Shown here piece after piece: positions 5,969-52,201 of a stretch of DNA of 60,000 bases. The notes under the pieces are model-generated. The model was not told where the DNA came from and searched no databases. It worked only from the letters and a program-made list of their open reading frames with translations. The position numbers and the translations under genes were made by a program. Where the stretch lies: positions 27,453,118 to 27,513,117 of the forward strand of contig OX442314.1 of NCBI GenBank assembly GCA_949358305.1. Reading direction: 5' to 3'. The number at the start of each line of letters is the position of its first letter. The stretch's first letter is position 1. Origin of the DNA: Strigamia acuminata. Taxonomy: Eukaryota; Arthropoda; Chilopoda; Geophilomorpha; Linotaeniidae.

Positions 5969-6035
5969 GGCGGATGCGACGATGACTCACCGGATGCGAC
6001 GATGACTCACCGGATGCGACGGCGACTCGCAGATG
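5969..6035. repeat. 20-bp tandem repeat
   Basis: Two and a half head-to-tail copies of CGGATGCGACGATGACTCAC, the last drifting to GGCGACTCGC. Also present at 45969-46035. Confidence 0.75.
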
Positions 6036-6051
6036 AGGCGGCGATGTGCTT

Positions 6052-6410
6052 TGTGAAATCGCAAATGTTTCCTCATTGGGGCGTGGAATACATCACAGAT
6101 TGGCACTGGCTTAAAGTATTTTTAACGAGAATGTGTAATTTTGAATTAATATTTACAGCTGTTTATTGGTTTTAGGTGACGCGTTGTGGAGAGTTTATTG
6201 TCCCGTTGGACAATCATACAAAGAAACCGTACGAAAACTTTATTCTCGGTCGAGTAATGGGCTCGACGATAAACATACCAAAGGATTTGATTTTTGTCAG
6301 CGTTCCTAGATTTATTGGAGGATTTTGTTCCAGCGAAGGCGAAATATTTGGAGATTTGGAGATTTCGAATGGAGTAATGACCGCAAACAGTGAGCACCGA
6401 CTAATTAATT
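6052..6410 (+). pseudogene. METTL4-like: METTL4-like 3' fragment, internally deleted
   Basis: Two exons of an MT-A70 family N6-adenine methyltransferase can be read. The first ends YITDWHWLK at 6115. The second starts at 6176 (VTRCGEFIVPLDNHTKKPYE, then LILGRV-type sequence). A 60-base GT-AG intron lies between. METTL4 proteins have the same W-V-K / GEFVFPLD / KKPYE / LGRV succession near the C-terminus. After FVSVPR the sequence jumps past the SHKP and GWTSFGDE parts into what is 3' flank in the 37-kb copy, so this copy has lost its end. The catalytic DPPW exon is absent. It is a pseudogene duplicated with the channel unit; the twin is at 46834. Confidence 0.75.
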
Positions 6411-6464
6411 TATTTCAAAATACAAATTTGGTAACTACAATATTCAAAATAAAACAGTAGGGCC

Positions 6465-6680
6465 ATGTTAGCTGCAAAACGTGTTAAAAGTGGAAAAACA
6501 TTACACGGATTTATTAGTACGGTATGTGCGAATAACTTTGCAGCAAGTGATAAAACAAACATGACTCAATTGGTATTTTGTGCATTACATAAATCATTGC
6601 ATGCTATTATGGCAAATCTGAATAATAATGTCCAAAAAGCAAACACAAAGACAAGTGAACTCTCTGTGTTACGGACATAA
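6465..6680 (+). other. 71-codon ORF, unrecognised, decayed in sister units
   Basis: Begins MLAAKRVKSGKTLHG and lies between the METTL4 piece and the 3' end of the channel gene. The same DNA occurs at 47248 (intact), near 26070 (stop after about 20 codons) and near 38083 (broken). In another frame of the 38-kb copy CTLCGADISLGQACESC looks like a small zinc-binding motif, so the block may be a relic exon of a third gene whose true frame differs. I do not recognise it. Confidence 0.25.
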
Positions 6681-6822
6681 GCTTAGGACAGGCATCTGAA
6701 AGGTGTCAGGTCCAGCAGTGATACGTTTACACAATATGAGGCTCCAAGGTGCAGTGTAACTTCTGGACCCTTCGTAGTAGCCCTTTTCGGTGCCCTAATT
6801 ACATATGACTTGACACAGATGG

Positions 6823-9800
6823 TTAGTATGTTTTCTTTAATTTAACTAACTCAGAAATCAGCTTTTGCAAGAGTTGTGGAATTGCAAGAATAGAAAGGCC
6901 AAGCATCAGTGAAAAACAATTTCCAATGTCACAACACAGTGCAACTCTAGTGTAGGATAATACTTGTGAATACTCTTCAATTATGTTATTCAGTGGAACT
7001 ATTGAAAGAACTTTGATTGGCCATGCATCGGGATGTTGAAAGTAAACATATGTGTCAAACACTGGTTCTTCACAAAGTGGATGACAACCGCACTCTTTCA
7101 TTACATCAGTAGTTAAAGATCTGTTCAAGAACAATCCCAATGAAGTTTTAGCGTTTTCAATATTGCTACAATCATTCTTTTTGATGTTGACCAAAAATGG
7201 TAACCTAAAAATATTTGAATAACTTATATTACAGACTACATCGTAGAACGTTTAGTACAAAGTTCGTAAGTGTAATTTCTTTGGGTTTTTTTTATTTTGT
7301 AAACAAAGAAAAACCAAGCAAATGATACGTATGACAAATTTCTGCGTAAATACTAAAAGAAAAAATACTCACTTGCACTGAATTTCATTATAAATCTTCT
7401 TTTCGTAGCAATCGTCTTGGCATCTTTGGTGTTTGTCTCGGTCAAGGCAAGGTTGAGATTGTAAATTCAATCGGATGGTCTAAATTAAAACAACTGGTTA
7501 AGCAGTTTTGTTTAGAATTGTCTGCAAACATACTTTAAACATTTTGAATGTGAGAATGGTAAACGTGTTTGCTTTAATTCTTCTTCTGCTTCTGAGAATT
7601 GAGGGAATTGATGGGATTGTTGCTTCGCTTTGTTGAAAGTACACCTGCAGAAAGAAAATTATATTTTATCATTATTAAAGATCAGTTTGCTTCTAATGAA
7701 ATAGCATTGCAGTTAACTAAAATACAAGATGGTGCAGGTATATTTTATCTCCGTGCATTCTGCTAAGCTCTATAGTAAATTTCTTACAACATTATTTAGT
7801 TGGATTATGAGTGTATGACAATGAGTTTTTGCAGTTAGCTAAGGTCGAGCTTAGCAGATAGGGTAGTATCTGCCAAGTGCAATGTACTTATTCGAGTTCT
7901 GTGCATGATCAACAGTTGATGACAAATGAAATTTATTCCTTACTTCATACACATCTGGCTTACAGATTTGACGACTGTTTGGTCGAAAACTAAAAAATAT
8001 TGTTGTAGTAGCACCTGCATATGTTACTGGACCTAAGAAAACAATGCCGTTTTAGTCGTTCTATAACTTTTGCACAAATTTTTAATTACTAATATGAGAT
8101 TGATAGCATGTTCCTGTGTGCATTGGTATTTTGCTCCAAGATACATTAGATCTCAACCCTGTGTTCTGATAAGAAAATACAATTTTGTTAAATTTGGGAG
8201 AATTTGATTAAAGGCACGAGTTTCATCTAACACTCGCACATTTTATCTTACGGGTAACGACTTACATTTATCAAATGTCTTTTGATTCAATGGCTTTGTT
8301 TACACAATGCTTATTGACTCATTGACTCAACAGACATTTTTAAATATCGGACCAAACACTTACACTTTCAGCAATATCCATGGTGACCTTATCCATTACG
8401 GGTGTTTGAAATCTCCATACATCTTCCATCGATGATTTTTTCCCTCTGGTAGTCTTATTCATTAAATCAATGAAGTGAATTTTACATTCTGGAATGCCTG
8501 TAGTCTTGGCGTATTGGCTTCTGTAGTGTGTCATTAAGGGTCCGTCCATACATGCAATAATGTTGGGCAGATACAATGTGTCATTTTCTTGAATATTTAC
8601 TACATATCTTGTCGGTTCGCTCAAATATAATGTGATTCTTTCTTTGCTAACATAAACTGCTAGCAAGCCGGAAATAAAAACAAGAATACGATACAACGTG
8701 CGTTGAAGCATGGGCGAAGTTTTCATTGTCTTTTTCTTCAAATTTTCCAAATTGATTTGTTTAACAACTTTTGTTTTTATCTGAGTTTGTAGTCGAATAG
8801 GTCTGATATAATTGCAGAAGAGGAGCAAACCAAAGTGTACAATTTCGATTATATAGAGGAGAGACAATCCCAAGCAAAATCCTAGGTTGCCGCCAAAATC
8901 GATCACCAAATCAGGAATTTTGTAAATGTAGATTTCTGTCATTCTGACAAATGTTTCTTCCATCACTTTAAGATTTAAACTTGCTAAATCTTTACTACTG
9001 GGTTCATCTTCAAAATCTAACAGTGAAAGATGAATAATTTTGTTATAATTACACGTAAAAATGATATCGTTTGACTTAACTAGTATCGGTGTTCACTATT
9101 AGGAGATAAACTCTTGTTTGACAAGGTCTTAAGCAACCACATTCAATTGTCGCCAGTGTGGATGTTTCGGGATGGTAGGAGTCGTCATACACTTTAAACA
9201 CAATTGATTTGTTTGCTTCTAAACTGCAGTCTGGCAGATTTTTGTCAGCCATGTAAGGCAACCTAAGTTAACAATCTATCAGCATTATCAATTGTTTCAG
9301 TGAACTAAGTTTACAGACCTGCATGGTGGATGTTTTTTTAGAGTTTGTTTTGTCACACAGTCTTCGTAACATTGGGTTTGCTTTATCAGGCTGGGCTCAC
9401 AGAAGGGCTTTCTTGAAGGCAAAAATTGATACTTGCAGAAAAGAAATACAATATCACTATTTTAGTTATATGTATCGATGTACAAATCAAATGTATTATA
9501 AATGCATAGAGATAACTGATTATGCGACGCGATTCACAGTTGAATAAGCTGCAAGATATATACAAATAATCAATTATAACTCACTTGACGCAAAATAAAT
9601 TGAAATTCAACTTCAATTCCCATCTGTATTGGCATAGTATATCTATACGGCATGACACCATCCTTTATTGACATCTAGCATTAAATGGTGTTATGTATAT
9701 TATATTAATTTTACACTGCATTCAAAAAGTCATGTTTTAAATGTTTTAGGTGTTTGTTTTTCTTATTCTTTTTTAAACATCAGAAATCAAAAACACAAAC

Positions 9801-11127
9801 ACATACAGTGGTCGCCAAAAGTTTAGCACCACTACTGTCAGTTGTGTTATTTAGTGCTTTTACAACAAGTAAAGCCTGCAGCGTCTTTCTGATACAAAAT
9901 ATGAATTTGGCATTAAATTTTAATCATTGAAATGATGTAATGTTGTTTGTATTTTCTAAGTAAATGTATCTTGAAGTCATAAAATAAAGATTTATGTTGG
10001 TTTATTTCAACATTCCTGTTTATTAAGTTTATTGATTGCTTCTTCCAGGGAACAAAAGAATTTTCAAATTTTTTTATTGGTTGTTTTGTCTGGAAAGCAG
10101 TCAAAATGGCAACCATTGTTTTGATCTATTTTTGGTATCACTATACAAGTGAAAAGGCTCTGCCAATCGGAAATAGGCCCAAGTTACACATGGACAGAGT
10201 ATATAATAAGTTGATTTGACGTATCGATTGTGACAAAATAAACTGACCGTAATCATTGGTGCTTTACAGGTCCCATTTTTCTTAAAGACGGCATTAAATT
10301 TTCTGTTTAGAGCTAGTTTTACATCTAAAAAAATAGCTTAGTCAAAATTTATATAAACAGACAAGATAATTATCGTATATTAATTTTACCTGTTGTTATA
10401 GTCAGTGTACGGCCAAAAACATAATCGTTGTGTTTTAATGCAATTGTTTTACCCTGACTTGTATAATTGCCACTTTTTATCTTAGTGCCAAGTAACACAG
10501 TTTTGCCCTAAAAAACGTTATTGGCAAATTATTGGAAACAATATTTATTAATATGGCTTTTTTACGTATCCAAAAGAACATGTAGTAAATATAATTTCTT
10601 TTTAAATTGCATAAAGGAATAAGGTTACTTACCTGTCTGAATTTTATGTGCTGCAAATTGTCTGAAATGTTGGAATGTTTCCACAAGTGAGAATAATTTT
10701 CAACCTTGACTTGCTTTAAGATGATTCCTCTCACTGGGAGCCTGCAATCTCTCATTAACTCTTTTGTACCTTCAATTGTGTTAGGTTCTGGTATTTTGTC
10801 CCAGCACTTCGACATAAATGGAGTATCAAGAGCCATGAGTCTCACTTTAGGGAATCCGTTTTCCTGTATTGGAACAAATTCGATTTCAACTTTGTAAGGT
10901 CCAGTCATGTAGAAGCGAAATCTTTCCCAAGTTTGATAACTGAAGATGCCGAAACAAACGACCAAACCAAGCAACCAAATGAAACGAAGTATTCCAGTGT
11001 TCGCGAGAACTTGGTTTATAAATTGAAAACTATCTTTGCCCATCAGTGAAGTTTGCATTTTTTGTTGCACATATTGGCGAATACGGTTACGGGTCCGACG
11101 AATAAGCAACGCTCTAGGAGCCGTCAT
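6823..11127 (-). CDS. tandem-fused double DEG/ENaC channel, copy 1
   Basis: Sodium-channel family (pickpocket/ASIC/ENaC) with two subunits in one chain. Exons on the minus strand: 10633-11127, 10390-10507, 10248-10324, 9585-9674, 9319-9431, 9081-9262, 8364-9016, 8090-8165, 7944-8032, 7534-7644, 7373-7479, 6823-7204. Total 2493 nt, about 830 residues; all junctions are GT-AG and in phase. Module A: TM1 about 46-64, cysteine motif CGCLRPC at 339-345, TM2 about 397-424 with pore motif GLS at 408-410. Linker about 425-465, basic. Module B: TM1 about 466-481, CGCHPLC at 742-748, TM2 about 790-818 with GLS at 806-808. The start ATG follows AGAAAA. Family members are normally single ~450-700 residue subunits that assemble as trimers in the plasma membrane. 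No HG gating motif is evident in either N-terminus. Function as a channel is inferred. Confidence 0.85.
9907..10205. mobile_element. truncated mariner-like MITE in intron 3 of copy 1
   Basis: Right half of a ~400-bp MITE that is complete at 50881-51279. It ends GGACAGAGTATA at about 10204. The left half is deleted, joining intron sequence (TTTGGCATTAAATTTTAAT) directly to the interior. The 67-codon minus-strand frame inside it (9913-10116) belongs to the element, not to the channel. Confidence 0.6.
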
Positions 11128-19082: not shown

Positions 19083-19100
19083 CGGGTGTCCGTGAGCTGT

Positions 19101-26452: not shown

Positions 26453-29400
26453 TTAGTATTTTTTCTTTAATTTTAATAACTTAGAAACCAGCTTTTGCAA
26501 GAGTTGTGGAATTGCAAGAATCGAAAAGCCAAGCATCAGTGAAAAACAATTTCCAATGTCACAACACAGTGCAACTGCAGTGTAGGATAATACTTGTTTA
26601 AACTCTTCAATTATGTTATTCAGTGGAATTATTGAAAGAACTTTGATTGGCCATGCATCGGGATGTTGAAAGTAAACATATGTGTCAAACACTTGTTCTT
26701 CACAAAGTGGATGACAACCGCACTCTTTCATTACATTAATAGTTAAAGATCTGTTCATGAACAATGCCAATGAAGTTTTAGCATCTTCAATATTAGTACA
26801 ATCATCCTTTTTGATGTTGACCAAAAATGGTAACCTGAAAATATTTGAATAACACATTACAAACTACATCGTAGAACGTTTAGTACAAAGTTCGAAAGTG
26901 TCATTTCTTTGGGTTTTTTATTTTGTAAAGAAAGAAAAACCACTAAAATGATACGTATGACAAATTTCTGCGTGAATGCTAAAAGAAAAAATACTCACTT
27001 GCACTGAATTTCATTATATATCTTTTTTTCGTAGCAATCGTCTTGGCATCTTTCGTGTTTGTCTCTGTCAAGGCAAGGTTGAGATTGTAAATTCAATCGG
27101 ATGGTCTAAATTAAAGCAATTAGTTAAGCAGTTTTGTTTAGAATTGTCTGCAAACATCGTACTTTAAACATTTTGAATGTGAGAATGGTAAACGTTTTTG
27201 TTTTAATAGATCTTCTGCTCTTGAGAATTGATGGAATGGATGGGATTGTCGCTTCGCTTTGTTGAAAGTACACCTGCAGAAAGAATAATATAATTTATTG
27301 TAGTATTCAAGATCAGTTTGCTTCTGATGAAATAGCCTTGCAGTTAACTAACAAGGGGAGCACATGAATAACACACTCACAGATTGTTGTCATATTAAAC
27401 AAGAAGGATTGTTATATCATGCTGAATGAGACCCTAAAGTTATTTCATTCCATAAACAGCCAACAATGCAAACAATGAGCTGAAAGTTGGCACTATTTTG
27501 TCTGTGTATACATCCAATCTGAGCAATCAGGCCTAGTGTATGAATACGATAAACAACAGTTGCTAGGTAAAAAGTAGTTCCAAGATCCAAGTTGAATTTT
27601 ATCATTTGATATTCAATGATGTCATTTCATCATTTGAGATTTAACGATGTCATGACATCAGAATTTTGTTTACCAACATGACTGTCTTCATGAAGACAAC
27701 AATAGTTTGTAGTGGTGGTCCAGTGGTTAAGGCAATGGACTAGGAATCTTTCTACACAGGTTCAAATCCTGATGTGTTTGAAAATTTTTACTCCTATATT
27801 TTAAATTTTTTTTGCAGTAATTTTAATGTTTGTAATTTTATGTTTGTTAAAAAATTAAAATTAATTAATTATTAAAGTTTTCTAAAAACAAACATAAAAT
27901 TACAAACATTAAAATTACTGCTAAAAAAAATTAAAAAACAAAAGTAAAAATTTTCACAGACAGCAGGATTTGAACCTGTGTGGAAAGATTCCTAGTCCAT
28001 TGCCTTAACCACTGGACCACCACTACAAACTACTATTGTCTTCATGAAGACAGTCATGTTGGTGAATAAAGTTGTGATGTCATATGTCATGAGATATCAA
28101 ATGATGAAATGACCTCATTGAATATCAAATGATAAAATTCAACTTGGATCTTGGAACTACTTTTTACCTAGCAACTGTTGTTTATCGTATTCATACACTA
28201 GGCCTGATTGCTCAGATTGGATGTATACACAGACAAAATAGTGCCAACTTTCAGCTCATTGTTTGCATTGTTGGCTGTTTATGGAATGAAATAACTTTAG
28301 GGTCTCATTCAGCATGATATAACAATTCTTCTTGTTTAATATGAAAACAATCTGTGAGTGTGTTATTCATGTGCTCCCCTTGTAAGCGTCTACAGCAGCG
28401 GTCGACAATAGGCGGATGCGGAAGGTCGAAACTTGGACCGCGGTGACGTTTTAGCGACGTTTTTCTTTCGGTTTCTTTGGTTTTTCTTTTTCGGTGTTTT
28501 TTTCTTGTTTTTCCTGTTTTTTTTTCCGTGTTTTTTTAGGTTTTATTGGTATTTTTTGGGTTGTGTGTGTTTATTGGGGGATTTTTTGGTTTTTAAATGT
28601 TTTTTCCGTTTTCTTAGGTTTTTAGTAAGGCTTTTAAGTGTTTTTTTTTTCTACACCGGGATAAAAATTTTCAATAGTATCCGGACCCCACTTAAAATTA
28701 ATTCCCAACCCCTGGCCTACAGTATATGCCAAGTGCAATGCACTTATCTGAGTGCAAATGACAAATGGAACTTATTCATTACTTCGTAGTCATCTGGCTT
28801 ACAGATTTGGCGACTGTTTGGTCGAAAACTAAAATATATTGCTGTAGCAACACCTGCATATGTTAGTGGACCTAAGAAAACAATGTTGTTTTAGTAGTCC
28901 TATAATGTTTGCACACATGTTTAATTACCCATTTGAGATTGATAGCATGTTCCTGTGTGCATTGGTATTTTGCTCCAAGATACATTTGATCTGAATCCTA
29001 AGTTCTGATAAGAAAATACTTTTACCGGTCTACATAATTTTCTTAAATTTGGTTGAATTTGATTAAAGTCACGAGTTTCATTTAGCACTCACATTTTATC
29101 TAATAAGTTACATTTATCAAACGCCTTTTGAATCAATGGCTTTGTTTACATAATGCTTATGGACTCAATAGTGAGTTTGCGGTTGCCAATTGTTCCTTAT
29201 AATTATGAGTTACAAGCTCATAATTATAAAATTGGACTTATAACATAACGTAACTCCTCAATTTTTACACTATTTTGTAAAATAAGGGAGCCAATCAGAT
29301 CGCTTAACACTATTTTAAGCTCCTCCCACTATTGCAAATGGCGCTGATGGTGCTAATAGAAATTCAAAATGGCTGCCTGACCTGTTTCAACAATCAGCCT

Positions 29401-32400
29401 CAATCACAATTTCTTTCTGCCATCGAAGGATAGAAACAACTAAAATCATTCCAGGTAAGCAAATAAATGAACTGGAAGACAATTTCATGTCTGAAAACTG
29501 TCAAATTAGTAAAACTACAGATTTTCATTTTCTTTTGCATATGGATTTGTTCTACCATTACATGCAAGAGATTTGTACTGTTCACATGGTATTTATAAGT
29601 ATAATTTATAAAATGTTTATTGTACCGCAAGTGCCTATTTCAAGAAGGAATTATAATTATAATTATGAGCTTGTAACTCATAATTATAAGGAACAATTGG
29701 CAACCGCAAACTCACTATTGACTCAACAGACATTTTTAAATATCGGACCAAACACTTACACTTTCAGCAAATTCCATGATGACCTTATCCATTACGGGTG
29801 TTTGAAATCTCCATATATCTTCCATCGATGATTTTTTCCCTCCGATAGTCTTATTCATTAAATCAATGAAGTGAATTTTACATTCTGGAATGCCTGTAGT
29901 TTTGGCATATTGGCTTCTGTAGTGTGTCATTAAGGGTCCATCCATACATGCAATGACGTTGGGCAAATATAATGTGTTATTTTCTTGAATATTTACTACA
30001 TATCTTGTCGGTTCGCTCAAATATAATGCGATTCTTTCTTTGCTCACATAAACCGCTAGTAAGCCGGAAATAAAAACAAGAATACGATACAAGGTGCGTT
30101 GAAGCTTGGGCGAAGTTTTCATTGTCTTTTTCTTCAAATTTTCCAATTTGATTTGATTAACAATTTTGGTTTTTATCTGAGCATGTAGTCGAACAGGTCT
30201 GATATAATTGCAGAAGAGGAGCAAACCAAAGTGTACAATTTCAATTATAGAGAGGAGTGACAATCCCAAGCAAAATCCTAGGTTGCCGCCCAAATCAATC
30301 ACCAAATTAGGGATTTTGTAAATGTAGATTTCTGTCATCCACACAGATGTTTCTTGTGACACTTTAAAATTAATACTTGTACGATTTATATCACTGGGTT
30401 CATCTTCAAAATCTAGCAGTTAAAGATAAATAATTTCATTATATTTATGCGTTAAAATGATATTGTTTGACGTAACTAGTATCGGTGTGCACTATTAGGA
30501 GATAAACTCTTGTTTGACAAGGTCTTAAGCAACCACATTCAATTGTTGCCAGCGTGGATGTTTCGGGTTTATACGAGTTTTTGTACACTTGATCCACGAT
30601 TGATTTGTTTGCTTCTAAACTGCAGTCTGGCAGATTTTTGTCAGCCATGTAAGGCAATCTATCAAGTAAGTTAACCATCTATTAGCATCCTAATGAATGA
30701 TCAATGTTTACGTTAAGTAAGTTTAAACCTGCACTTAGGATTGGCTTTGAGATTTTGCTTGGTCACACAGTTTTTATAACATTCGGTCTGCTTCTTCAGA
30801 CTGGGCTCACAGTAGGGGTTTCTTGAAGGCAAAAATTGATACTTGCAGGAAAGAAATACAGTTTTACTATTTTGGTTATACAAGTATGTGTTGATTTATA
30901 AATTAAATGTATTATAAAAGATTTATAAATCATATGTATTATAAAAGCATAGAGATAACTATTTATTCAATGCGATTCACAGTTGAATAAGCTGCAAGAA
31001 CTATACAAACAAGCAATTATAACTCACTTGACGCAAAATAAATTGAAATTCAGCTTCAATTCCCATCTGTATTGGCATAGTATATCTATACGGCATGACA
31101 CCATCCTTCATTGACATCTAGCATTAAATGGTGGTATGTATATTATTTGTCTTGTGTGCGGTAGCGGTATACCGCACCGCGGTAATTTTTTGGGACGCAA
31201 CACTGCGGTATTCAGCAAAATACCGCAAAACGGTATACCGCAATACCGCAAATACCGCAATACCGGATAATACTACAATACCGCAAATACCGCAATACCG
31301 GATAATACTACAATACCGCAAATACCACAAAAAGCTGCAACAAACTAAATGGCGCTTTAACCAATTGATCTGAAATTCTATCTAAACGCATAATGCCTTA
31401 TACCAAAACGGGTACATTTTACTTTTATCTTTCCAACGGTTAAAAATACCGGATAAGGCTACCGATAGGTGCAGGCTATTTTGTCTAATCAGTTTATTTG
31501 ACGCCATCTTTATGGCAACGACTATAGCAAGCTGATTTGACGAATCGATTTTGACAAAATAAACTGACCGTAATCATTGGTGCTTTACAGGTCCCATTTT
31601 TCTTAATGACGACATTAAATTTTCTGTTTAGAGCTAGTTTTAAATCTAGAAAAAATAGTTTAGTCAAAAATTATTTAAACAGACTAGATGATTATCGTAT
31701 ATTAATTTCACCTGTTATTGTTACAGTCAGTGTACGGCCTGCTACATAATCGTTGTATTTTAATGCAATTGTTTTACCCCGATTTGTATAATTGCCACTT
31801 TTTATCTTAGTGCCAAGTAACACAGTTTTGTCCTAAAAAAATTATTGGCAAATTATTGGAAACAATATTTATTAATATGACTTTTTTACGTATCCAAAAG
31901 AACATACTGTATAGTAAATATAATTTCTTTTTAAATTGCATAAAGGAATAAGGTTCCTTACCTGTCTGAATTTTATGTGCTGCAAATTTTCTGAAATGTT
32001 GGAATGTTCCCACAAGTGAGAATAATTTTCAACCTTGACTTGCTGTGAGATGATTCCTCTTACTGGGAGCCTGCAATCTCTCATTAACTCGCTTGCACCA
32101 TCAATTGTGTTCGGTTCTGGTATTTTGTCCCAGTACTTTGACATCAATGGAGTATCTAGGCCCATGAGCATAACTTCAGGGAATCTGTTTTCCTGTATTG
32201 GAACATATTCAATTTCAACTTTGAAAGGTCCAGTCATGTAGAAGCGAAATCTTTCCCAAGTTTGATAACTGAAGATGCCGAAACAAACGACTAAACCAAA
32301 CAACCAAATGAAACGAAGTATTCCAGTGTTCTCGAGAACTTGGTTTATAAATTGAAAACTATCTTTGTCCGTCAATGAAGTTATCATCTTTCGTTGCACG

Positions 32401-32456
32401 AATTGGCGAATACGATTACGGGTCCGGCGAATAAACAACGCTCTAGGAGCCGTCAT
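26453..32456 (-). CDS. tandem-fused double DEG/ENaC channel, copy 2
   Basis: Same twelve-exon plan as copy 1, about 831 codons. Checked exons: first 31962-32456 (495 nt), fusion exon 29760-30412 (653 nt), last 26453-26834 (382 nt). The rest lie near 31730-31835, 31570-31645, 31030-31120, 30730-30845, 30480-30660, 28950-29010, 28785-28870, 27165-27275 and 27000-27110. Module A: TM1 ILRFIWLFGLVVCFGIF, ECGCLRPC, TM2 LGGNLGFCLGLSLLSIIEIV. Linker, then module B: TM1 TLYRILVFISGLLAVYV, ECGCHPLCEEQVF, TM2 DIGNCFSLMLGFSILAI with GFS instead of GLS at the pore. The gene is stretched by four transposon insertions, all intronic, so coding capacity is kept. No stop or frameshift seen. Confidence 0.82.
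27709..27780 (+). repeat. tRNA-Ser-like segment in left arm
   Basis: Has an A-box-like TGGTCCAGTGGTTAAGGC and a B-box GGTTCAAATCC with the D-arm and anticodon-stem order of a serine tRNA (GACTAGGAATC). The variable arm and acceptor stem are degenerate, so it is a pseudo-tRNA with a possible internal RNA polymerase III promoter. Confidence 0.55.
27958..28027 (-). repeat. tRNA-Ser-like segment in right arm
   Basis: Inverted copy of the left-arm segment (B-box GGTTCAAATCC on the minus strand at about 27968-27978). The two face each other across the fold-back centre. Confidence 0.55.
28396..28714. mobile_element. hAT-like MITE
   Basis: Ends CAGCGGTCGACAAT and, complemented, CAGGGGTTGGGAAT. Flanked by eight-base near-duplicates GTCTACAG (28388-28395) and GCCTACAG (28715-28722). 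Interior is T-rich low-complexity DNA; a Phe-rich frame through it is not a gene. Confidence 0.7.
29171..29715. mobile_element. 545-bp mariner-like MITE
   Basis: Ends GTGAGTTTGCGGTTGCCAAT and exact complement, with TA on both sides. The TTGACTCA...CAACAG site seen uninterrupted in copies 1 and 4 is the empty site. The arms also contain TATAATTATGAGTT/AACTCATAATTATA. It sits in intron 7 of channel copy 2, close to the fusion exon. Confidence 0.75.
31145..31530. mobile_element. insert rich in GCGGTATACCGC with 35-bp tandem repeats
   Basis: Replaces intron 3 sequence of the sister copies. It opens with the palindrome-rich GCGGTAGCGGTATACCGCAC. It contains two and a half copies of a 35-bp unit (31243, 31278, 31313) made of ATACCGCAA/ATACCGGATAATACTACA. 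Probably a transposon or satellite-like insertion; no coding frame. Confidence 0.5.
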
Positions 32457-38474: not shown

Positions 38475-41400
38475 CTATTTTTTCTTTACTTTTAGTAACT
38501 TCGAAACCAGCTTTTGCAAGAGTTGTGGAATTGCAAGAATAGAAAAGCCAAGCATCAGTGAAAAACAATTTCCAATGTCACAACACAGTGCAACTCCAGT
38601 GTAGGATAATACTTGCTTAAACTCTTCAATTATGTTATTCATTGGAATTATTGAAAGGACTTTGAATGGCCATGCTGCTGTGTGTTGAAAGTAAACATAT
38701 GTGTCAAACACTGGTTCTTCACAAAGTGGATGACAACCACACTCTTTCATTACATTAGTAGTTAAAGATCTGTTCATGAACAATGCCAATGAAGTTTTAG
38801 CGTCTTCAATATTGGTACAATCATTCTTTTTGAGGTTGACCAAAAATGGTAACCTAAAAATATTTGAATAACATATATTATAAACTACATCGTAGAACGT
38901 TTAGTACAAAGTTCGCGAGTGTCTTTTTAAAAGCTTTTATTAAAGGCTTTTATTAAAGGCTTTTATTTAACTTGACTTGAATGTTTGTGTGTGGGGTTCA
39001 ACCTTGGACTAATGAGTCCAAGGTTCAACTTCCGGTTTGTGTAATGTCCACAAACAATGAATTAAAAAATTAATCGTAAGATTGGGAAGTAGACTTTTCC
39101 GGTGCAGTTTTTGATCTACTTTTCAATTATAACAATAAAATTAATATTAAAAGTAGTTAAAGGGAGAAAATGTTAAATTACGGCGAAATGTAATGGAAAA
39201 CAGTGTCACCTGGCGGAACCTATGTCCTTTAATGGATGCCAAAATGTTCGCCCGATACGAATTTTGATGATTTCGGCACAAAAAAAGAATTTATAAATTC
39301 TAAAACTAAGCTACCGTAAATCTGGTTAAAATGAAAATTCCTATTTGCCCATATATTTTGTTTTTTAATATTGTTAAGAAAAAGTACTTTTTTGAAATTT
39401 TTGTTTCAATCACGAAACAATCTGCGGTAGTAGCGCACTCTGGTGGCGATTTGAAGCCCCAAAATGACGTCACCCATTCGTGATTTATGCGGCGTATACG
39501 TTTTTGATTGACGCCAACTCTGTCACCGATAGGCCTCTTTCTCTTAGTACCGCTCTTGCATCGTTTTGGCTTGCACCCTCTCATAGTTTCCAGCATATCT
39601 ACCGCCAACGCCTCAATACGCTCGCGTAACTCTTCCGACGGACACCGACCCAGATCCGCGAAGAGAACCTTAACCCTCTCGCAGACGGAAGGTGCACCGA
39701 AGAATAGCATAAAAGCCTTTTTCCAAAAACGTACCATAGTTCTTTTGTTTTACTTGTTTTGGTTTTTTTTATTTTGCTGAACAAAGAAAAACCGAACAAA
39801 TAATACGTATGACAAATTTCTGCATAAATATTAAAAGAAAAAATACTCACTTGCACTGAATTTCATTATAAATCTTTTTTTCGTAGCAATCTTCTTGGCA
39901 TCTTGTGTGTTTGTCTCGGCCAAGGCAAGGTTGAGATTGTAAATTCAATCGGATGGTCTAAAATAAAACAATTGGTTAAGCAGTTTTGTTTAGATTTGTC
40001 TGCAAACATACTTTAAACATTTTGAATGTGAGAATGGTAAACGTGTTTGCTTTAATACTTCTTCTACTTCCTAGAATTGAGGGAATTGATGGAATTGTTG
40101 CTTCGCTTTGTTGAAAGTACACCTGCAGAAAGAAAATTATATTTTATCACTGTATTAAAGATCAGTTTGATTCTGATGAAATAGCCTTGCAGTTAACTAA
40201 AATACAAGATGGTGCAGGTATATTTTATCTTCGTGCATACTGCTAACTTGTAAGGTCTATAGTAAATTTCTTACAGCATTAATTAGTTAATTATGACTAG
40301 ATCTTGGATAAATGCATAAATGCATAGAATATATTTATATTGAATAAAAAGCCGAAATTGGCTTAAATTGCATATTTTGCGAAAATCGGTAAATAAATGC
40401 AAACCGGTAAATTGCCTTTTTTCCAGGAAAAAACGGCGATTTGTGTCTTTTTTTAATGATATGTAACATGTACGTATCAATTTTTGCCTTTTTTTTAAAG
40501 ACGTGTATCGTGTACATATGCTTTATATTCGGAAAACTGAGGACTTCGCCAATAACAGACACCAAGGGAATCACTAAATGAGTGTCTAGAAAATATTTTC
40601 AGAAATAAACAAAAAAAAAATTAAAAAAAAGAAAGAAATGAATTGTAATTACTAATTATAATTCATTTACATCAAGAACACTTGGAAATAGCATTACTTC
40701 AGAGCTTTGAACTAGAAGGAGCTCTCGAGTGAACTTTGAACTAGAATGAGCTCTCAGTTCAAAGTTCAAAGTTCACTCAAATAAATTTTTTTATTTTGCA
40801 TAAAATGGAATTTTTGGTGCATATAAAACGAAATTTATTTTTCATAAATATCTGGGGTCTAAATGACGGAGTTTGTGTAGTTAGCTAAGCTCCTATTTGC
40901 CAAGTGCAATGTGCTTATTTTAGTGCTGTGTAAGATCAACAGTTGGTGAGAAATAGGAATTTATTCATTACTTCGTACTCATCTGGCTTACAGATTTGAC
41001 GACTGTTTGGTCGAAAACTAAAAAATATTGCTGTAGCAACACCTGCATATGTTAGTGGACCTAAGAAAACAATGTTGTTTTAGTAGTCCTATAATGTTTG
41101 CACACATTTCTAATTACGCATTTGAGATTGATAGCATGTTCCTGTGTGCATTGGTATTTTGGTCCAAGATACATTCGATCTGAATCCTGTGTTCTGATAA
41201 GAAAATACCTTTTACCAGTGAATTCAGTTACCTTAAATTTGGGAGAATTTAAGTAAAGGCACGAGTTTCATCTAGCACTCACATTTTATCTAATAAGTTA
41301 CATTTACCAAATGCCTTTTGAATCAATGGCTTTGTTTACACAATGCTTATCGACCCATTGACCCAACAGAATACAGAAAATTTTAATTATCGGATCAAAC

Positions 41401-44072
41401 ACTTACACTTTCAGCATATTCCATGGTGACCTTATCTATTACGGGTGTTTGAAATCTCCATACATCTTCCATCGATGATTTTTTCCCTCTGATAGTCTTA
41501 TTCATTAAATCAATGAAGTGAATTTTACATTCTGGAATGCCTGTAGTGTTGGCGTATTGGCTTCTGTAGTGTGTCATTAAGGGTCCGTCCATACATGCAA
41601 TAATGTTGGGCAGATATAATGTGTCATTTTCTTGAATATTTACTACATATCTTGTCGGTTCGCTCAAATATAATGCGATTCTTTCTTTGCTCACATAAAC
41701 TGCTAGTAAGCCGGAAATAAAAACAAGAATACGATACAAGGTGCGTTGAAGCTTAGGCGAAGTTTCCATTGTCTTTTTCTTCAAATTTTCCAAATTGATT
41801 TGATTAACAACTTTTGTTTTTATCTGAGCTTGTAGTCGAACAGGCCTGATATAATTGCAGAGGAGGAGCAAACCAAAGTGTACAATTTCGATTATAGAGA
41901 GGAGAGACAATCCCAAGCAAAATCCTAGGTTGCCGCCCAAATCGATGACCAAATTAGGAATTTTGTAAATGTAGATTTCTGTCATTCTGACAAATGTTTC
42001 TTCCATCGCTTTAAATTTTATACTTGCTAAATCTTTACTACTGGGTTCATCTTCAAAATCTAACAGTGAAAGATGAATAATTTTGTTATAATTACACGTC
42101 AAAATGATATTGTTCGACTTAACTAGTATCGGTCTGCACTATTAGGAGATAAACTCTCGTTTGACAAGGTCTTAAGCAACCACATTCAATTGTTGCCAGC
42201 GTGGATGTTTTGGGTTTGAACGAGTTTTCGTACACTTGAGCCACGATTGATTTGTTTGCTTCTAAACTGCAGTCTGGCAGAATTTCGTCAGCCATGTAAG
42301 GCAACCTAAGTTAACCATCTATTAGCATACTAATGAATGATCAATGTGTACGTTAAGTAAGTTTAAACCTGCACTTTGGATCGGTTTTGAGATTTTGCTT
42401 GTTCACACAGTCTTTATAACATTGGGTTTGCTTTATCAGGCTGGGCTCACAGTAGGGCTTTCTTGAAGGCAAAAATTGATACTTGCAGAAAAGAAATACA
42501 ATTTTACTATTTTAGTTATATGTATTGATTTACAAATCAAATGTATTATAAATGCATAGAGATAACTAATCATGCAACGCGATTCACAGTTGAATAAGCT
42601 GCAAGAAATATACAAGCAAGCAATTATAACTCACTTGACGCAAAATAAATGGAACTTCAACTTCAATTCCCATCTGTATTGTAAAAGTATATCTATACGG
42701 CAGGACACCATCCTTCGCAGACATCTATTATTAAATTGTGTTATGTATATTATATTAATTTTACACTAGGTGCATTCAAAATATCATGTTTCAAATGTTT
42801 TGTTTGTTTTTCTTATTCTTTTTTTGACATCAGAAATCAAAAACACAAATCCATACAGTGGTCGCCAAAAGTTTAGCACCACTACTGTCATTTGCACTAT
42901 TTAGTGCTTTTACAACAAGTAAAACCTGCAGCGTTTTTGTGATATAAAATATAAATTTGCCATTAAATTCTAAATTCTTAAATGCTAAAACATTTAAACA
43001 AATCATACATTGTAATTAACAATAGTAATTTTTAGTGTTTGTATACAAATTGTTGCTGGACAAAGGTTTAGTACCAAATTCAAAAATGCACAAAAAACCT
43101 GGTTTCTTCAGAAAATCATTATTTATTTGAACAATATATTTCAATATTTTGTTGGCTAACCAACTAATAAGTTGATTTGACTTATCGATTTTGCAAAATG
43201 AACTGACCGTAATCATTGGTGCTTTACAGGTCCCATTTTTCTTAAAGACGACATTAAATATTCTGTTTAGAGCTAGTTTTACATCTAAAAAAAATTGCTT
43301 AGTCAAAAATTATATAACCAGACAAGATAATTATCGTATATTAATTTTACCTGTTGTTACAATCAGTGTACGGCCAAAAACATAATCGTTGTATTTTAAT
43401 GCAAATGTTTTACCCTGATTTGTATAATTGCCACTTTTTATCTTAGTGCCAAGTAACACAGTTTTGCCCTAAAAAAGTTATTGGCAACAATATTTGTTAA
43501 TACGGATTTCTTAGGTATCCAAAAGAACAGTATATATAATTTCTTTTTAAATTGCACAAAGGAATAAGGTAACTTGCCTGTTTGATTTTGAGGTACTGCA
43601 TATTTTCTGATATGTTGGAATGTTCCCACAAGTTTGTATAATTTTTAACCTTGACTTGCTGTGAGATGATTCCTCTCACTGCGAGCCTGCAAGCTTTCAT
43701 TAACTTTTGTGCACCATCAATTGTATTCGGTTCTGGTATTTTGTCCCAGTACTTCGACATCAATGGAGTGTCAAGAGCCATGAGTCTCACTTCAGGGAAT
43801 CTGTTTTCCTGTATTGGAACAAATTCGATTTCAACTTTGTAAGGTCCAGACATGTAGAAGCAAAATCTTTCCCAAGTTTGATAACTGAAGATGCCGAAAC
43901 AAACGACCAAACCAAGCAACCAAATGAAACGAAGTATTCCAGTGTTCTCGAGAACTTGGTTTATAAATTGAAAACTATCTTTGCCCGTCAGTGAAGTTTG
44001 CATTTTTTGTTGCACATATTGGCGAATACGGTTACGGGTCCGACGAATAAGCAACGCTCTAGGAGCCGTCAT
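38475..44072 (-). CDS. tandem-fused double DEG/ENaC channel, copy 3
   Basis: Twelve-exon plan kept, about 829 codons. First exon 43578-44072, fusion exon 41407-42059 (653 nt), last exon 38475-38853. Other exons fall near 43367-43484, 43209-43285, 42630-42718, 42370-42485, 42125-42302, 41115-41185, 40975-41060, 40015-40130, 39850-39965. Module A has ECGCLRPC and LGGNLGFCLGLSLLSIIEIV. Module B has ECGCHPLCEEPVF and DIGNCFSLMLGFSILAI (GFS pore). The donor after exon 1 is GC (CAG|GCAAGT), a tolerated GC-AG intron. Two insertions, at 38930-39752 and about 40285-40860, lie in introns. No stop or frameshift seen. Confidence 0.82.
38930..39752 (-). mobile_element. LINE-like 3' end, copy 2, inside channel copy 3 intron
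   Basis: Inverted relative to 36430-37010 and sharing its blocks. It begins (plus strand) with TTTTAAAAGCTTTTATTAAAGGCTTTTATTA tail-type repeats, as the other copy ends. A 143-codon minus frame (39306-39737) starts MVRFWKKAFMLFFGAPSVCE and is basic in the middle (KPKRCKSGTKRKRPIGDR); I do not recognise it. It may be the C-terminal remnant of the element's ORF. Confidence 0.5.
40285..40865. mobile_element. unclassified insertion in channel copy 3 intron
   Basis: Absent from copies 1 and 4 at the matching place. AT-rich with CGGTAAATAAATGCAAACCGG and a direct-repeat stretch GAACTAGAAGGAGCTCTC / GAACTAGAATGAGCTCTC near 40710-40750. No coding frame, ends not resolved. Confidence 0.4.
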
Positions 44073-47605: not shown

Positions 47606-50600
47606 TTAGTATGTTTTCTTTAATTTAACTAACTCAGAAATCAGCTTTTGCAAGAGTTGTGGAATTGCAAGAATAGAAAGGCCAAGCATCAGTGAAAAAC
47701 AATTTCCAATGTCACAACACAGTGCAACTCTAGTGTAGGATAATACTTGTGAATACTCTTCAATTATGTTATTCAGTGGAACTATTGAAAGAACTTTGAT
47801 TGGCCATGCATCGGGATGTTGAAAGTAAACATATGTGTCAAACACTGGTTCTTCACAAAGTGGATGACAACCGCACTCTTTCATTACATCAGTAGTTAAA
47901 GATCTGTTCAAGAACAATCCCAATGAAGTTTTAGCGTTTTCAATATTGCTACAATCATTCTTTTTGATGTTGACCAAAAATGGTAACCTAAAAATATTTG
48001 AATAACTTATATTACAGACTACATCGTAGAACGTTTAGTACAAAGTTCGTAAGTGTAATTTCTTTGGGTTTTTTTTATTTTGTAAACAAAGAAAAACCAA
48101 GCAAATGATACGTATGACAAATTTCTGCGTAAATACTAAAAGAAAAAATACTCACTTGCACTGAATTTCATTATAAATCTTCTTTTCGTAGCAATCGTCT
48201 TGGCATCTTTGGTGTTTGTCTCGGTCAAGGCAAGGTTGAGATTGTAAATTCAATCGGATGGTCTAAATTAAAACAACTGGTTAAGCAGTTTTGTTTAGAA
48301 TTGTCTGCAAACATACTTTAAACATTTTGAATGTGAGAATGGTAAACGTGTTTGCTTTAATTCTTCTTCTGCTTCTGAGAATTGAGGGAATTGATGGGAT
48401 TGTTGCTTCGCTTTGTTGAAAGTACACCTGCAGAAAGAAAATTATATTTTATCATTATTAAAGATCAGTTTGCTTCTAATGAAATAGCATTGCAGTTAAC
48501 TAAAATACAAGATGGTGCAGGTATATTTTATCTCCGTGCATTCTGCTAAGCTCTATAGTAAATTTCTTACAACATTATTTAGTTGGATTATGAGTGTATG
48601 ACAATGAGTTTTTGCAGTTAGCTAAGGTCGAGCTTAGCAGATAGGGTTGTATCTGCCAAGTGCAATGTACTTATTCGAGTTCTGTGCATGATCAACAGTT
48701 GATGACAAATGAAATTTATTCCTTACTTCATACACATCTGGCTTACAGATTTGACGACTGTTTGGTCGAAAACTAAAAAATATTGTTGTAGTAGCACCTG
48801 CATATGTTACTGGACCTAAGAAAACAATGTCGTTTTAGTCGTTCTATAACTTTTGCACAAATTTTTAATTACTAATATGAGATTGATAGCATGTTCCTGT
48901 GTGCATTGTTATTTTGCTCCAAGATACATTAGATCTCAACCCTGTGTTCTGATAAGAAAATACAATTTTGTTAAATTTGGGAGAATTTGATTAAAGGCAC
49001 GAGTTTCATCTAACACTCGCACATTTTATCTTACGGGTAACGACTTACATTTATCAAATGTCTTTTGATTCAATGGCTTTGTTTACACAATGCTTATTGA
49101 CTCATTGACTCAACAGACATTTTTAAATATCGGACCAAACACTTACACTTTCAGCAATATCCATGGTGACCTTATCCATTACGGGTGTTTGAAATCTCCA
49201 TACATCTTCCATCGATGATTTTTTCCCTCTGGTAGTCTTATTCATTAAATCAATGAAGTGAATTTTACATTCTGGAATGCCTGTAGTGTTGGCATATTGG
49301 CTTCTGTAGTGTGTCATTAAGGGTCCGTCCATACATGCAATAATGTTGGGCAGATACAATGTGTCATTTTCTTGAATATTTACTACATATCTTGTCGGTT
49401 CGCTCAAATATAATGTGATTCTTTCTTTGCTAACATAAACTGCTAGCAAGCCGGAAATAAAAACAAGAATACGATACAACGTGCGTTGAAGCATGGGCGA
49501 AGTTTTCATTGTCTTTTTCTTCAAATTTTCCAAATTGATTTGTTTAACAACTTTTGTTTTTATCTGAGTTTGTAGTCGAATAGGTCTGATATAATTGCAG
49601 AAGAGGAGCAAACCAAAGTGAACAATTTCAATTATAGAGAGGAGAGACAATCCCAAGCAAAATCCTAGGTTGCCGCCAAAATCGATCACCAAATCAGGAA
49701 TTTTGTAAATGTAGATTTCTGTCATTCTGACAAATGTTTCTTCCATCACTTTAAGATTTAAACTTGCTAAATCTTTACTACTGGGTTCATCTTCAAACTC
49801 TAACGGTGAAAGATGAAGAATTTTGTTATAATTACACGTAAAAATGATATCGTTGACTTAACTAGTATCGGTGTGCACTATTAGAAGATAAACTCTTGTT
49901 TGACAAGGTCTTAAGCAACCACATTCAATTGTCGCCAGTGTGGATGTTTCGGGAAGGTAGGAGTCGTCATACACTTTAAACACAATTGATTTGTTTGCTT
50001 CTAAACTGCAGTCTGGCAGATTTTTGTCAGCCATGTAAGGCAACCTAAGTTAACAATCTATCAGCATTATCAATTGTTTCAGTGAACTAAGTTTACAGAC
50101 CTGCATGGTGGATGTTTTTTTAGAGTTTGTTTTGTCACACAGTCTTCATAACATTGCGTTTGCTTTATCAGGCTGGGCTCACAGTAGGGCTTTCTTGAAG
50201 GCAAAAATTGATACTTGCAGAAAAGAAATACAATATCACTATTTTAGTTACATGTATTGATGTACAAATCAAATGTATTATAAATGAGAGATAACTAATT
50301 ATGCAACGCCATTAACAGTTGAATAAGCTGCAAGATATATAGAAATAAGCAATTATAAGTTAACTCACTTGACGCAAAATAAATTGAAATTCAACTTCAA
50401 TTCCCATCTGTATTGGCATAGTATATCTATACGGCATGACACCATCCTTCATTGACATCTAGCATTAAATGGTGTTAAGTATATTATATTAATTTTACAC
50501 TAGCTGCATTCAAAAAGTCATGTTTTAAATGTTTTAGGTGTTTGTTTTTCTTATTCTTTTTTAAACATTAGAAATCAAAAACACAAACATACAGTGGTGG

Positions 50601-52201
50601 GCAAAAGTTTAGCACCACTATTGTCATTTGCAGCGGCTTTCTAATACAAAATATGAATTTGGCCTTAAATTTTGCTTTTAGAAAATGCTAAAACATTTAA
50701 ACAAATCATACATTGTAATTAACAATAGTAATTAACAATAGTAATTTTTAGTGTTTGTATACAAATTGTTGCTGGACAAACGTTTAGCACCGCATTCATA
50801 AAAGCACAGGAAACCTGGTTTTTTCAGAAAATCATTGTTGATTTGAACAATACATTTCAATATTTTGTTTGCTAACCGACTATACTCTGTCCATGTATAA
50901 CTTGGTCCTATTTCCCATTGGCTGAGCCTCATAACTCACTTTGTGCTGCCACCAGGAAAAATAGTTCAGAGTGATCTTAAATTTGTTTGATGATTTTAAT
51001 CATTGAAATGATGTAATGTTGTTTGTATTTTCTAAGTAAATGTATCTTGAAGTTATAAAATAAAGATTTATGTTGGTTTATTTCAACATTCCTGTTTATT
51101 AAGTTTATTGCTTGCTTCTTCCAGGAAACAAAAGAATTTTTAAATTTTTTTATTGGTTGTTTTGTCTGGAAAGCAGTCAAAATGGCAACCATTGTTTTGA
51201 TCTATTTTTGGCATCACTACACAAGTGAAAAGGCTCTGCCAATCGGAAATAGGCCCAAGTTACACAAGGACAGAGTGTAATAAGTTGATTTGACGTATTG
51301 ATTGTGACAAAATAAACTGACCGTAATCATTGGTGCTTTACAGGTCCCATTTTTCTTAAAGACGGCATTAAATTTTCTGTTTGGTGCTAGTTTTAAATCT
51401 AAAAAAAATAGCTTAGTCAAAATTTATATTAACAGACAAGATAATTATCGTGTATTAATTTTACCTGTTGTTACAGTCAGTGTACGGCCAAAAACATAAT
51501 CGTTGTATCTTAATGCAATTGTTTTACCCTGACTTGTATAATTGCCACTTTTTATCTTAGTGCCAAGTAACATAGTTTTGCCCTAAAAAAGTTATTGGCA
51601 AATTATTGGAAACAATATTTATTAATATGGCGTTTTTACGTATCCAAAAGAACATGTAGTAAATATAATTTCTTTTTAAATTGCATAAAGGAATAAGGTT
51701 ACTTACCTGTCTGAATTTTATGTGCTGCAAATTGTCTGAAATGTTGGAATGTTTCCACAAGTGAGAATAATTTTCAACCTTGACTTGCTTTAAGATGATT
51801 CCTCTCACTGGGAGCCTGCAATCTCTCATTAACTCTTTTGTACCTTCAATTGTGTTAGGTTCTGGTATTTTGTCCCAGTACTTCGACATAAATGGAGTAT
51901 CAAGAGCCATGAGTCTCACTTTAGGGAATCCGTTTTCCTGTATTGGAACAAATTCGATTTCAACTTTGTAAGGTCCAGACATGTAGAAGCGAAATCTTTC
52001 CCAAGTTTGATAACTGAAGATGCCGAAACAAACGACCAAACCAAGCAACCAAATGAAACGAAGTATTCCAGTGTTCGCGAGAACTTGGTTTATAAATTGA
52101 AAACTATCTTTGCCCATCAGTGAAGTTTGCATTTTTTGTTGCACATATTGGCGAATACGGTTACGGGTCCGACGAATAAGCAACGCTCTAAGAGCCGTCA
52201 T
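47606..52201 (-). CDS. tandem-fused double DEG/ENaC channel, copy 4
   Basis: Exons: 51707-52201, 51465-51582, 51322-51398, 50369-50458, 50101-50213, 49863-50044, 49147-49799, 48873-48948, 48727-48815, 48317-48427, 48156-48262, 47606-47987. Lengths equal those of copy 1 exactly (495, 118, 77, 90, 113, 182, 653, 76, 89, 111, 107, 382), about 830 residues. Both pore motifs are GLS. The second residue block reads MTALRALLIRR versus MTAPRALLIRR elsewhere. Nearly identical to copy 1 in exons 7-12 and introns, more diverged in intron 3, which here holds a complete MITE. Upstream sequence resembles other units to about 52500. Confidence 0.85.
50881..51279. mobile_element. complete ~400-bp mariner-like MITE in intron 3 of copy 4
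   Basis: Ends TATACTCTGTCCATGTATAA and complement TACACTCTGTCCTTGTGTAA, followed inward by CCTATTTCC(C/G)ATTGGC on both arms. Relatives: 9907-10205 (truncated), 12035-12186 (fragment), 55877-56286. The 71-codon frame inside (50977-51192) is not recognised. Confidence 0.65.

What the first reader, a model, noticed from the sequence alone, without database searches (positions are those of the whole stretch)
8364..9016. Natural tandem fusion of two DEG/ENaC subunits in one exon
One uninterrupted 653-nt exon encodes TM2 of one channel module (FGGNLGFCLGLSLL), a basic linker of about 40 residues, and the N-terminus and TM1 of a second (TLYRILVFISGLLAVYV). Hand splicing extends this to an 830-residue, four-TM, two-ectodomain protein. 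DEG/ENaC channels are known as trimers of single two-TM subunits. Two modules per chain would force a new stoichiometry (for example paired trimers or 3 A + 3 B). I know of no described natural concatemer in this family.
Basis: partly seen in the sequence, partly recalled or inferred. Interest (0 to 1): 0.92.

Follow-up and report, generated by a model that had tools for sequence, protein, structure and literature searches.

The report
Centipede channels built two-in-one
In a soil centipede, hundreds of genes each appear to encode two sodium-channel subunits joined into one protein, an arrangement we did not find described for this channel family, which is known as three separate subunits.

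Summary
The 653-nt exon at 9016-8364 (minus strand) joins TM2 of one DEG/ENaC module to TM1 of a second through 37 open, basic codons. Twelve GT-AG exons splice to 830 aa, and both halves pass the Pfam ASC cut-off (73 and 42 bits; cut-off 23.6). The window holds four intact tandem copies with identical intron phases. The assembly is Strigamia acuminata (longest scaffold matches to the base). Four own-genome searches together list 416 distinct loci with the TM2 and TM1 sides in one frame, 404 without a stop, at identities down to 22%; the lists are capped, so this is a lower bound. The linker shows weak purifying selection (pN/pS 0.67, p=0.012). The 12 genes read exon by exon all have two modules, none three. 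Two Strigamia maritima database proteins cross the same junction. Single-module genes exist in the same genome. A and B share intron phases 0,1,0,0,2, so fusion followed a tandem duplication. No natural DEG/ENaC concatemer appeared in the paper listings searched. Transcripts and stoichiometry are untested. A novel stoichiometry is possible but not forced: one A-B chain plus a single-module subunit would make an ordinary trimer. Sensory use is inferred.

The parts
6823..11127 (-). Copy 1: two-module DEG/ENaC gene, 12 exons, 830 aa (module A about residues 1-427, linker 428-464, module B 465-830)
10633..11127 (-). Copy 1 exon 1: start codon, TM1 of module A
10390..10507 (-). Copy 1 exon 2, module A ectodomain
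10248..10324 (-). Copy 1 exon 3, module A ectodomain
9585..9674 (-). Copy 1 exon 4, module A ectodomain
9319..9431 (-). Copy 1 exon 5, module A ectodomain
9081..9262 (-). Copy 1 exon 6, module A ectodomain
8364..9016 (-). Copy 1 exon 7, the fused exon: end of module A ectodomain, TM2 with GxS, linker, TM1 and start of module B ectodomain
8090..8165 (-). Copy 1 exon 8, module B ectodomain
7944..8032 (-). Copy 1 exon 9, module B ectodomain
7534..7644 (-). Copy 1 exon 10, module B ectodomain
7373..7479 (-). Copy 1 exon 11, module B ectodomain
6823..7204 (-). Copy 1 exon 12: TM2 of module B (DIGN...LGLS) and stop
26453..32456 (-). Copy 2: intact 12-exon two-module gene, 831 aa; fused exon 30412-29760
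38475..44072 (-). Copy 3: intact 12-exon two-module gene, 829 aa; fused exon 42059-41407; exon 1 donor is GC
47606..52201 (-). Copy 4: intact 12-exon two-module gene, 830 aa; fused exon 49799-49147; exons 99.0% identical to copy 1

Best explanation
These genes encode natural concatemers: one polypeptide with two DEG/ENaC modules (N-in, TM1, ectodomain, TM2, cytosolic linker of roughly 40-60 residues, TM1, ectodomain, TM2, C-in). An ancestral single-module gene with intron phases 0,1,0,0,2 was duplicated in tandem. The stop codon and intergenic DNA between the copies were then lost, so the last exon of A and the first exon of B became one exon. The fused gene was amplified to more than 400 loci in Strigamia. 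Both modules keep a GxS filter, so both TM2 helices probably line pores. Most likely assembly (inferred, about 40%): one A-B chain fills two neighbouring places of a trimeric pore and a single-module subunit, or one module of another chain, fills the third, fixing stoichiometry and order. Paired trimers made by three chains (about 25%) are the main alternative. Function (inferred, about 50%): sensory, probably chemosensory, receptor channels. Shown: the gene architecture, its number, constraint on the linker, and presence of the junction in a second species. Inferred: translation as one chain, assembly, and function. The stated confidence is for the single-chain two-module protein.
For: Intact 12-exon models in 4 of 4 window copies, with identical phases 0,1,0,0,2,1 | 0,1,0,0,2. 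Both halves of copy 1 pass the ASC cut-off. Four own-genome searches: 149 of 150, 145 of 150, 137 of 150 and 150 of 150 listed rows span both sides; the union is 416 loci, 404 without a stop. Linker pN/pS 0.67 against 0.39 (A side) and 0.45 (B side) over 15 disjoint pairs, p=0.012. Linker columns P72, L103 and Q104 are invariant in 30 rows that include three about 30% identical to the window exon. Exons are more alike and less gapped than introns of similar length. The order N exon, fused exon, terminal exon recurs in 12 genes: 4 in the window, 4 in 30 kb of C6, 4 in two C1 stretches. S. maritima T1ITA9 and T1ILX1 cross the junction at 66% and 55% identity to S. acuminata fused exons. 10 B modules from three subfamilies group together (88/83) apart from A modules and the segments found by the ASC profile.
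Against: No transcript or protein was seen. 12 of the 416 loci carry a stop in the match, and one of the 4 genes scanned in the C6 stretch has TGA right after TM2. Selection on the linker is weak; in the window copies alone there are too few changes, and copies 1 and 2 even show 7 nonsynonymous to 1 synonymous. Module A of copies 1 and 3 has dN/dS 0.97, which would also fit relaxed constraint. The second Gly of the B pore motif is N or S in 12 of 12 terminal exons read. In both S. maritima proteins Pfam reports ASC on the TM2 side only; the TM1 side rests on the alignments. AlphaFold on exon 7 alone failed (pLDDT 36). In the own-genome ASC search the profile also rang in 1 of 14 control genomes, a bacterium, which I did not follow.
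Confidence: 0.85

Rival explanations
1. One locus, two separate subunits: an internal promoter or internal start in the linker yields module B alone, and alternative polyadenylation yields module A alone.
For: The window copies have a Met in the linker (KKKTM) with A at -3 in copy 1. One C6 gene has a stop directly after TM2 of A while B stays open.
Against: No Met is invariant or nearly invariant in the linker of 30 aligned rows, whereas P72, L103 and Q104 are invariant. Starting at that Met leaves about 10 residues before TM1. A free A module would not need an open, constrained linker in 404 of 416 loci.
Confidence: 0.08
2. Single chain, but cleaved in the cytosolic linker after synthesis, so ordinary single subunits assemble in a fixed 1:1 ratio.
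For: The linker is basic and variable in length (10 K/R among 37 residues in copy 1; gaps), like a flexible processing site. Engineered ASIC chains also gave smaller bands, which the authors ascribe to cleavage or incomplete synthesis (PMC4529235, passage).
Against: By eye I saw no conserved cleavage motif in the alignment; no motif search was run. The linker lies on the cytosolic side, where secretory-pathway furin does not act (established knowledge).
Confidence: 0.07
3. Only module A forms the pore; module B is a divergent accessory or dominant-negative domain.
For: The TM2 of B has N or S in place of the second Gly of DxGG in 12 of 12 terminal exons read.
Against: B keeps GxS in all 10 B rows used in the tree (sequences; tree), and the B part of exon 7 is under purifying selection (0.45).
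Confidence: 0.2
4. Assembly or gene-model artefact: two neighbouring genes joined by a missed stop.
For: Protein databases are known to hold gene-model fusions (recalled, not checked).
Against: The fusion lies inside one uninterrupted exon in genomic DNA, in hundreds of diverged loci and in a second species' proteins. Single-module genes in the same genome do show a stop after TM2 and a separate TM1 exon.
Confidence: 0.01

Closest known systems
BRTNaC1, centipede thermal receptor (PDB 8ymr-8ymx)
   Same: Best solved relative by sequence: matches module B residues 557-823 (E 3e-19 for the whole chain) and, weakly, TM1 of module A. DEG/ENaC from a centipede (same species as PDPNaC1). Three chains per entry.
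   Different: One module of about 430 aa; DIGG at the pore.
PDPNaC1, antennal proton-gated channel of Scolopendra (PDB 9jf7, PMC12714832, passages seen)
   Same: Centipede DEG/ENaC; matches residues 471-821 (E 1e-8); the paper's passage also notes the lack of a canonical HG motif.
   Different: 421 aa, single module, homotrimer, nine exons.
Engineered ASIC concatemers (PMC10329638 and PMC4529235, passages seen)
   Same: Several DEG/ENaC subunits in one chain joined by short cytosolic linkers (19 residues, or N plus seven Q); functional channels.
   Different: Made in the laboratory. The natural linker is longer and evolving, and the two modules of copy 1 are only 23% identical over 143 positions.
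Two-pore-domain (K2P) potassium channels, two-pore channels, Nav/Cav (recalled)
   Same: Natural concatemers in other channel superfamilies, made by internal gene duplication.
   Different: Their pores have four places or repeats, which two or four modules fill evenly; a DEG/ENaC pore has three places.
Insect pickpockets, C. elegans degenerins, ASIC/ENaC
   Same: ASC domain, GxS, Cys-rich ectodomain.
   Different: One module per chain; families of tens of genes (all 30 in C. elegans, from the start of an abstract listed), not hundreds.

Membership tests
DEG/ENaC (ASC, PF00858) | Significant match to the ASC profile above the gathering score, in each half | tested here: met
   Copy 1: A 73.4 bits, B 42.2 bits, cut-off 23.6. 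The 6 exon frames from other subfamilies that were scanned also pass
DEG/ENaC (ASC, PF00858) | GxS selectivity filter at TM2 | tested here: met
   A: GLS in 4 of 4 window copies; B: GLS in copies 1 and 4, GFS in 2 and 3. A side GLS, GMS or GYS in 18 of 18 diverged loci
DEG/ENaC (ASC, PF00858) | Cys-rich ectodomain between TM1 and TM2 | tested here: met
   Conserved Cys between TM1 and TM2 in both modules, by eye; pairing not tested
DEG/ENaC (ASC, PF00858) | HG motif before TM1 | tested here: not met
   A has TSLMG, TSLTG or TSLTD; none seen in B (by eye). PDPNaC1 is also said to lack it, so it is not decisive for the family
DEG/ENaC (ASC, PF00858) | One module (two TM) per chain | tested here: not met
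   Two modules, four TM. This is the variant feature
DEG/ENaC (ASC, PF00858) | Trimeric pore, amiloride block, cation current | not testable with these tools
   Needs expression and recording
Natural ion-channel concatemer | Two homologous pore modules in one continuous open frame under selection, not just adjacent genes | tested here: met
Natural ion-channel concatemer | Transcribed and translated as one chain | not testable with these tools
   Only two S. maritima database proteins across the junction

The most novel reading that the evidence does not exclude
Geophilomorph centipedes evolved a family of more than 400 naturally concatenated DEG/ENaC receptor channels, the largest DEG/ENaC repertoire known to me, serving as a main contact-chemosensory gene family. 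The two-module chains assemble in a way not seen before in DEG/ENaC, either as two linked trimeric pores made from three chains or as obligate A-B plus single-subunit heterotrimers with fixed order.
Probability: 0.3. Interest if true: 0.95.

Novelty: new variant of a known kind. Interest (0 to 1): 0.87.

Why it matters
DEG/ENaC pores have three places, so a two-module chain cannot fill one evenly. Working out how it assembles tests what sets stoichiometry in this family and gives hundreds of natural linkers for concatemer design. The size of the family, in a genus whose sequenced relative S. maritima is reported to lack insect odorant receptors and apparently odorant-binding proteins (PMC4244043, passage seen), makes it a candidate sensory receptor repertoire. 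I found no report of it in the listings searched.

Tried and rejected
AlphaFold of exon 7 alone with the four window copies gave pLDDT 36 and pTM 0.24, so it was discarded and not searched against structures. Full spliced chains were not sent, since the tool admits only letter-for-letter translations. Three-module genes were looked for by spacing among the listed loci and by scanning the two tightest pairs: none found. Four weak partial TM2 hits after terminal exons in the C6 stretch were left unexplained. Module identity of A to B (23% over 143 positions) speaks against a recent duplication of one unit. The full-length protein search gave no hit among 4,079 candidates, and with a mixed alignment only T1ITA9. 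Literature: none of the listings showed a natural DEG/ENaC concatemer or a centipede DEG/ENaC expansion, but they are partial: one search listed 15 of 579 papers, searches found no paper with enough of their narrow terms, two, six (three on other channels or DNA use the phrase; none was opened), ten, six. bioRxiv and most subscription journals are not in that library. Errors of mine: one search used a wrong frame; one search printed its result, then failed when saving and was redone; the saved file kept, for some loci, a chance open frame in place of the true one. That fed the profiles and the tree. The tree was redone; one search was not redone, its frames being clear by eye. Rows dropped: L015 and L017 (same search scores as L014 and L016) were left out, and L009 (the window exon itself) and L011 also out.

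Full report
WHAT IS THERE. The minus strand at 9016-8364 is one open exon of 653 nt. It encodes the end of a DEG/ENaC ectodomain, TM2 with the GxS filter (FGGNLGFCLGLSLL), a basic linker, and TM1 plus the first part of the ectodomain of a second module. Twelve exons with GT-AG borders from 11127 to 6823 splice to a complete 830-residue frame with start and stop. Module A (residues 1-443 as submitted) scores 73.4 bits and module B (444-830) 42.2 bits with Pfam ASC, cut-off 23.6. The four hydrophobic stretches are at about 45-63, 403-425, 465-483 and 793-815. The two modules are 23% identical over 143 C-terminal positions. By sequence, the nearest solved structures are the centipede channels BRTNaC1 (E 3e-19) and PDPNaC1 (E 1e-8), then FaNaC1 and pickpocket 26.

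FOUR COPIES IN THE WINDOW. A search of the window with the protein found three more copies. All 12 exons of each copy align, giving intact frames of 831, 829 and 830 residues at 32456-26453, 44072-38475 and 52201-47606. Intron phases are the same in 4 of 4 copies: 0,1,0,0,2,1,0,1,0,0,2. One donor is GC instead of GT (copy 3, exon 1). Exons of copies 1 and 2 are 92.2% identical with 3 gaps, and introns of similar length 82.2% with 56 gaps. The first five phases (module A) equal the last five (module B). The phase-1 intron before exon 7 is extra; in the C6 genes and in the C1 genes at 7.8 and 15.9 Mb its place lies inside one open frame. I infer that A and B came from a tandem duplication of one gene, and that the terminal exon of A and the first exon of B were then fused at the DNA level, not through a splice junction.

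ORGANISM. The window lies in a held assembly, contig C1 of 66,985,994 bases, total 237,517,015 bases in 157 contigs. The genome note for the centipede Strigamia acuminata gives a longest scaffold of 66,985,994 bp, 237,534,282 bp in all and 158 scaffolds (PMC10556566, passages seen). The totals differ by 17 kb and one sequence; the exact length of the longest scaffold I take as identification.

FAMILY SIZE. Searching the whole genome with the fused exon gave 150 listed matches. 149 of 150 span both the TM2 and TM1 sides, 146 of those 149 without a stop, and 111 of the 149 are below 50% identity. Three more queries from other subfamilies gave 145 of 150, 137 of 150 (151 found, 150 listed) and 150 of 150 spanning rows. 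The rows that do not span are halves or fragments, some with stops. The union of spanning rows is 416 distinct loci, 404 without a stop: 214 on C1, 132 on C6, 33 on C8 and 37 elsewhere. Identical or near-identical rows at different places count separately. In 18 of 18 diverged loci that I read, exactly one frame holds both TM2 and TM1, with 37-63 residues between the two profile hits.

ONE CHAIN, TWO MODULES. In 12 genes (4 in the window, 4 in 30 kb of C6, 4 in two 10-kb stretches of C1) the profiles of TM1 and TM2 recur in the order N exon (TM1), fused exon (TM2 and TM1), terminal exon (TM2, stop). For one of the 12 the N exon lies outside the fetched stretch (L060), and in one C6 gene a TGA just after TM2 of A splits the fused frame. 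The closest neighbouring fused exons among the 416 loci are 3.6 kb apart, and the scan of that pair shows two separate two-module genes. As a control, 5 of the 8 loci brought in by the ASC profile (L002, L003, L005, L007, L008) show a TM1 exon and then a TM2 exon with a stop, that is, single-module genes; some of the TM1 hits are weak by E-value (up to 0.013) but clear by eye. In L007 the next gene begins with its own TM1 exon. The other three (L001, L004, L006) show no TM1 exon upstream of TM2 within the stretch.

THE LINKER IS CODING. Across 15 disjoint pairs drawn from 31 fused exons, the ratio of nonsynonymous to synonymous change per site, uncorrected for multiple hits, is 0.39 on the A side, 0.67 in the linker (123.8 against 50.2 changes; one-sided p=0.012) and 0.45 on the B side. 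One distant pair (L010 and L026) supplies 41.2 of the 123.8 linker changes. In the window copies alone the linker has too few changes to decide (7 nonsynonymous and 1 synonymous between copies 1 and 2), and module A of copies 1 and 3 shows dN/dS 0.97. Linker length varies by whole codons, and P72, L103 and Q104 are invariant in 30 rows, while no Met is. A shuffled linker is open in 980 of 20,000 trials.

SECOND SPECIES. A protein search with 30 fused exons returned 2 proteins, both from Strigamia maritima: T1ITA9 (66% identical over 219 positions to the window exon) and T1ILX1 (55% identical over 209 positions to a C6-type fused exon). Both read through TM2, linker and TM1, though Pfam marks ASC on the TM2 side only. 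They are partial database entries (346 and 362 aa). I infer that the arrangement, in two subfamilies, is older than the split of the two species.

ONE ORIGIN. In a tree of 44 TM2-side segments, the 10 B modules from three subfamilies fall on one side of a branch (support 88/83, below the tool's star limit), apart from 26 A modules and 8 segments brought in by the ASC profile, 5 of which are the clear single-module genes. In 12 of 12 terminal exons read, B has N or S where A usually has the second Gly of DxGG. This fits one fusion followed by amplification, but does not prove it.

HOW IT PROBABLY WORKS. Both ends of a DEG/ENaC subunit are cytosolic (established knowledge), so joining C-end to N-end keeps both modules in their normal orientation. 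Engineered ASIC chains with linkers of 8-19 residues give functional channels (PMC10329638 and PMC4529235, passages seen), so a linker of about 40 can span two neighbouring places of one pore. A trimer has three places. Hence either a single-module subunit, or one module of a second chain, takes the third place, or three chains build two linked trimers. I favour A-B plus one (about 40%) over paired trimers (about 25%). Module B as a non-conducting or regulatory partner, and a tetramer-like form as argued for ASIC1a in PMC4529235, remain open. The tandem arrays, high copy number, divergence and some interrupted members resemble chemoreceptor families (recalled). A related centipede channel sits in antennal sensory neurons (PMC12714832, passages). 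Sensory function is inference.

WHAT IS KNOWN. Seven literature searches listed no natural DEG/ENaC concatemer and no report of this centipede expansion; their limits are told under Tried and rejected. The S. maritima genome paper has no occurrence of ENaC, pickpocket, ppk, degenerin or sodium channel in its held main text. Protein databases may hold two-ASC proteins; I did not check them.

VERDICT. A real, repeated variant of a known channel family, present in two Strigamia species. It is strongly supported at gene level and untested at transcript and protein level.

Noticed in passing
genome G000 (Strigamia acuminata), C1, C6, C8 and others: At least 416 fused-exon DEG/ENaC loci besides single-module genes (for example on C4 near 7.37 and 7.89 Mb), a very large expansion of the family.
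   Followed up: yes
window 4101-6062 and 44101-46062; 6048-9844 and 46831-50630: Long segments 99.7% and 98.7% identical: recent segmental duplication or gene conversion; the second pair makes copies 1 and 4 near-identical.
   Followed up: partly
window 1-4373: DNA like the upstream region of the channel genes (4101-4373) is followed by a retroelement-like frame (DUF1759, DUF1758; 1205-3550 minus). The fused exon of the next gene copy lies 3.8 kb left of the window, so an element may sit between that copy's upstream region and its first exon.
   Followed up: partly
window 17637-24679, minus strand: LTR-retrotransposon-like frames with integrase, RNase H, reverse transcriptase and zinc-knuckle matches inside the array; described only.
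   Followed up: no
window 12764-13942 and 24765-25943: Identical 1,179-nt direct repeats on either side of the retroelement frames, possibly its long terminal repeats.
   Followed up: no
window 56487-57457: An 11-bp tandem repeat, 88 copies, 98% matches, open in three frames.
   Followed up: no
L039, L040 and L041, after the terminal exons of the C6 genes: Four partial TM2-like frames without TM1; decayed or alternative last exons.
   Followed up: partly
C6:4136641-4137210: A two-module locus with a TGA right after TM2 of module A and module B still open: an interrupted copy or a natural split.
   Followed up: partly
control genomes: The ASC profile rang above its cut-off in one of 14 control genomes, Thermotoga maritima, where a DEG/ENaC channel is not expected.
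   Followed up: no
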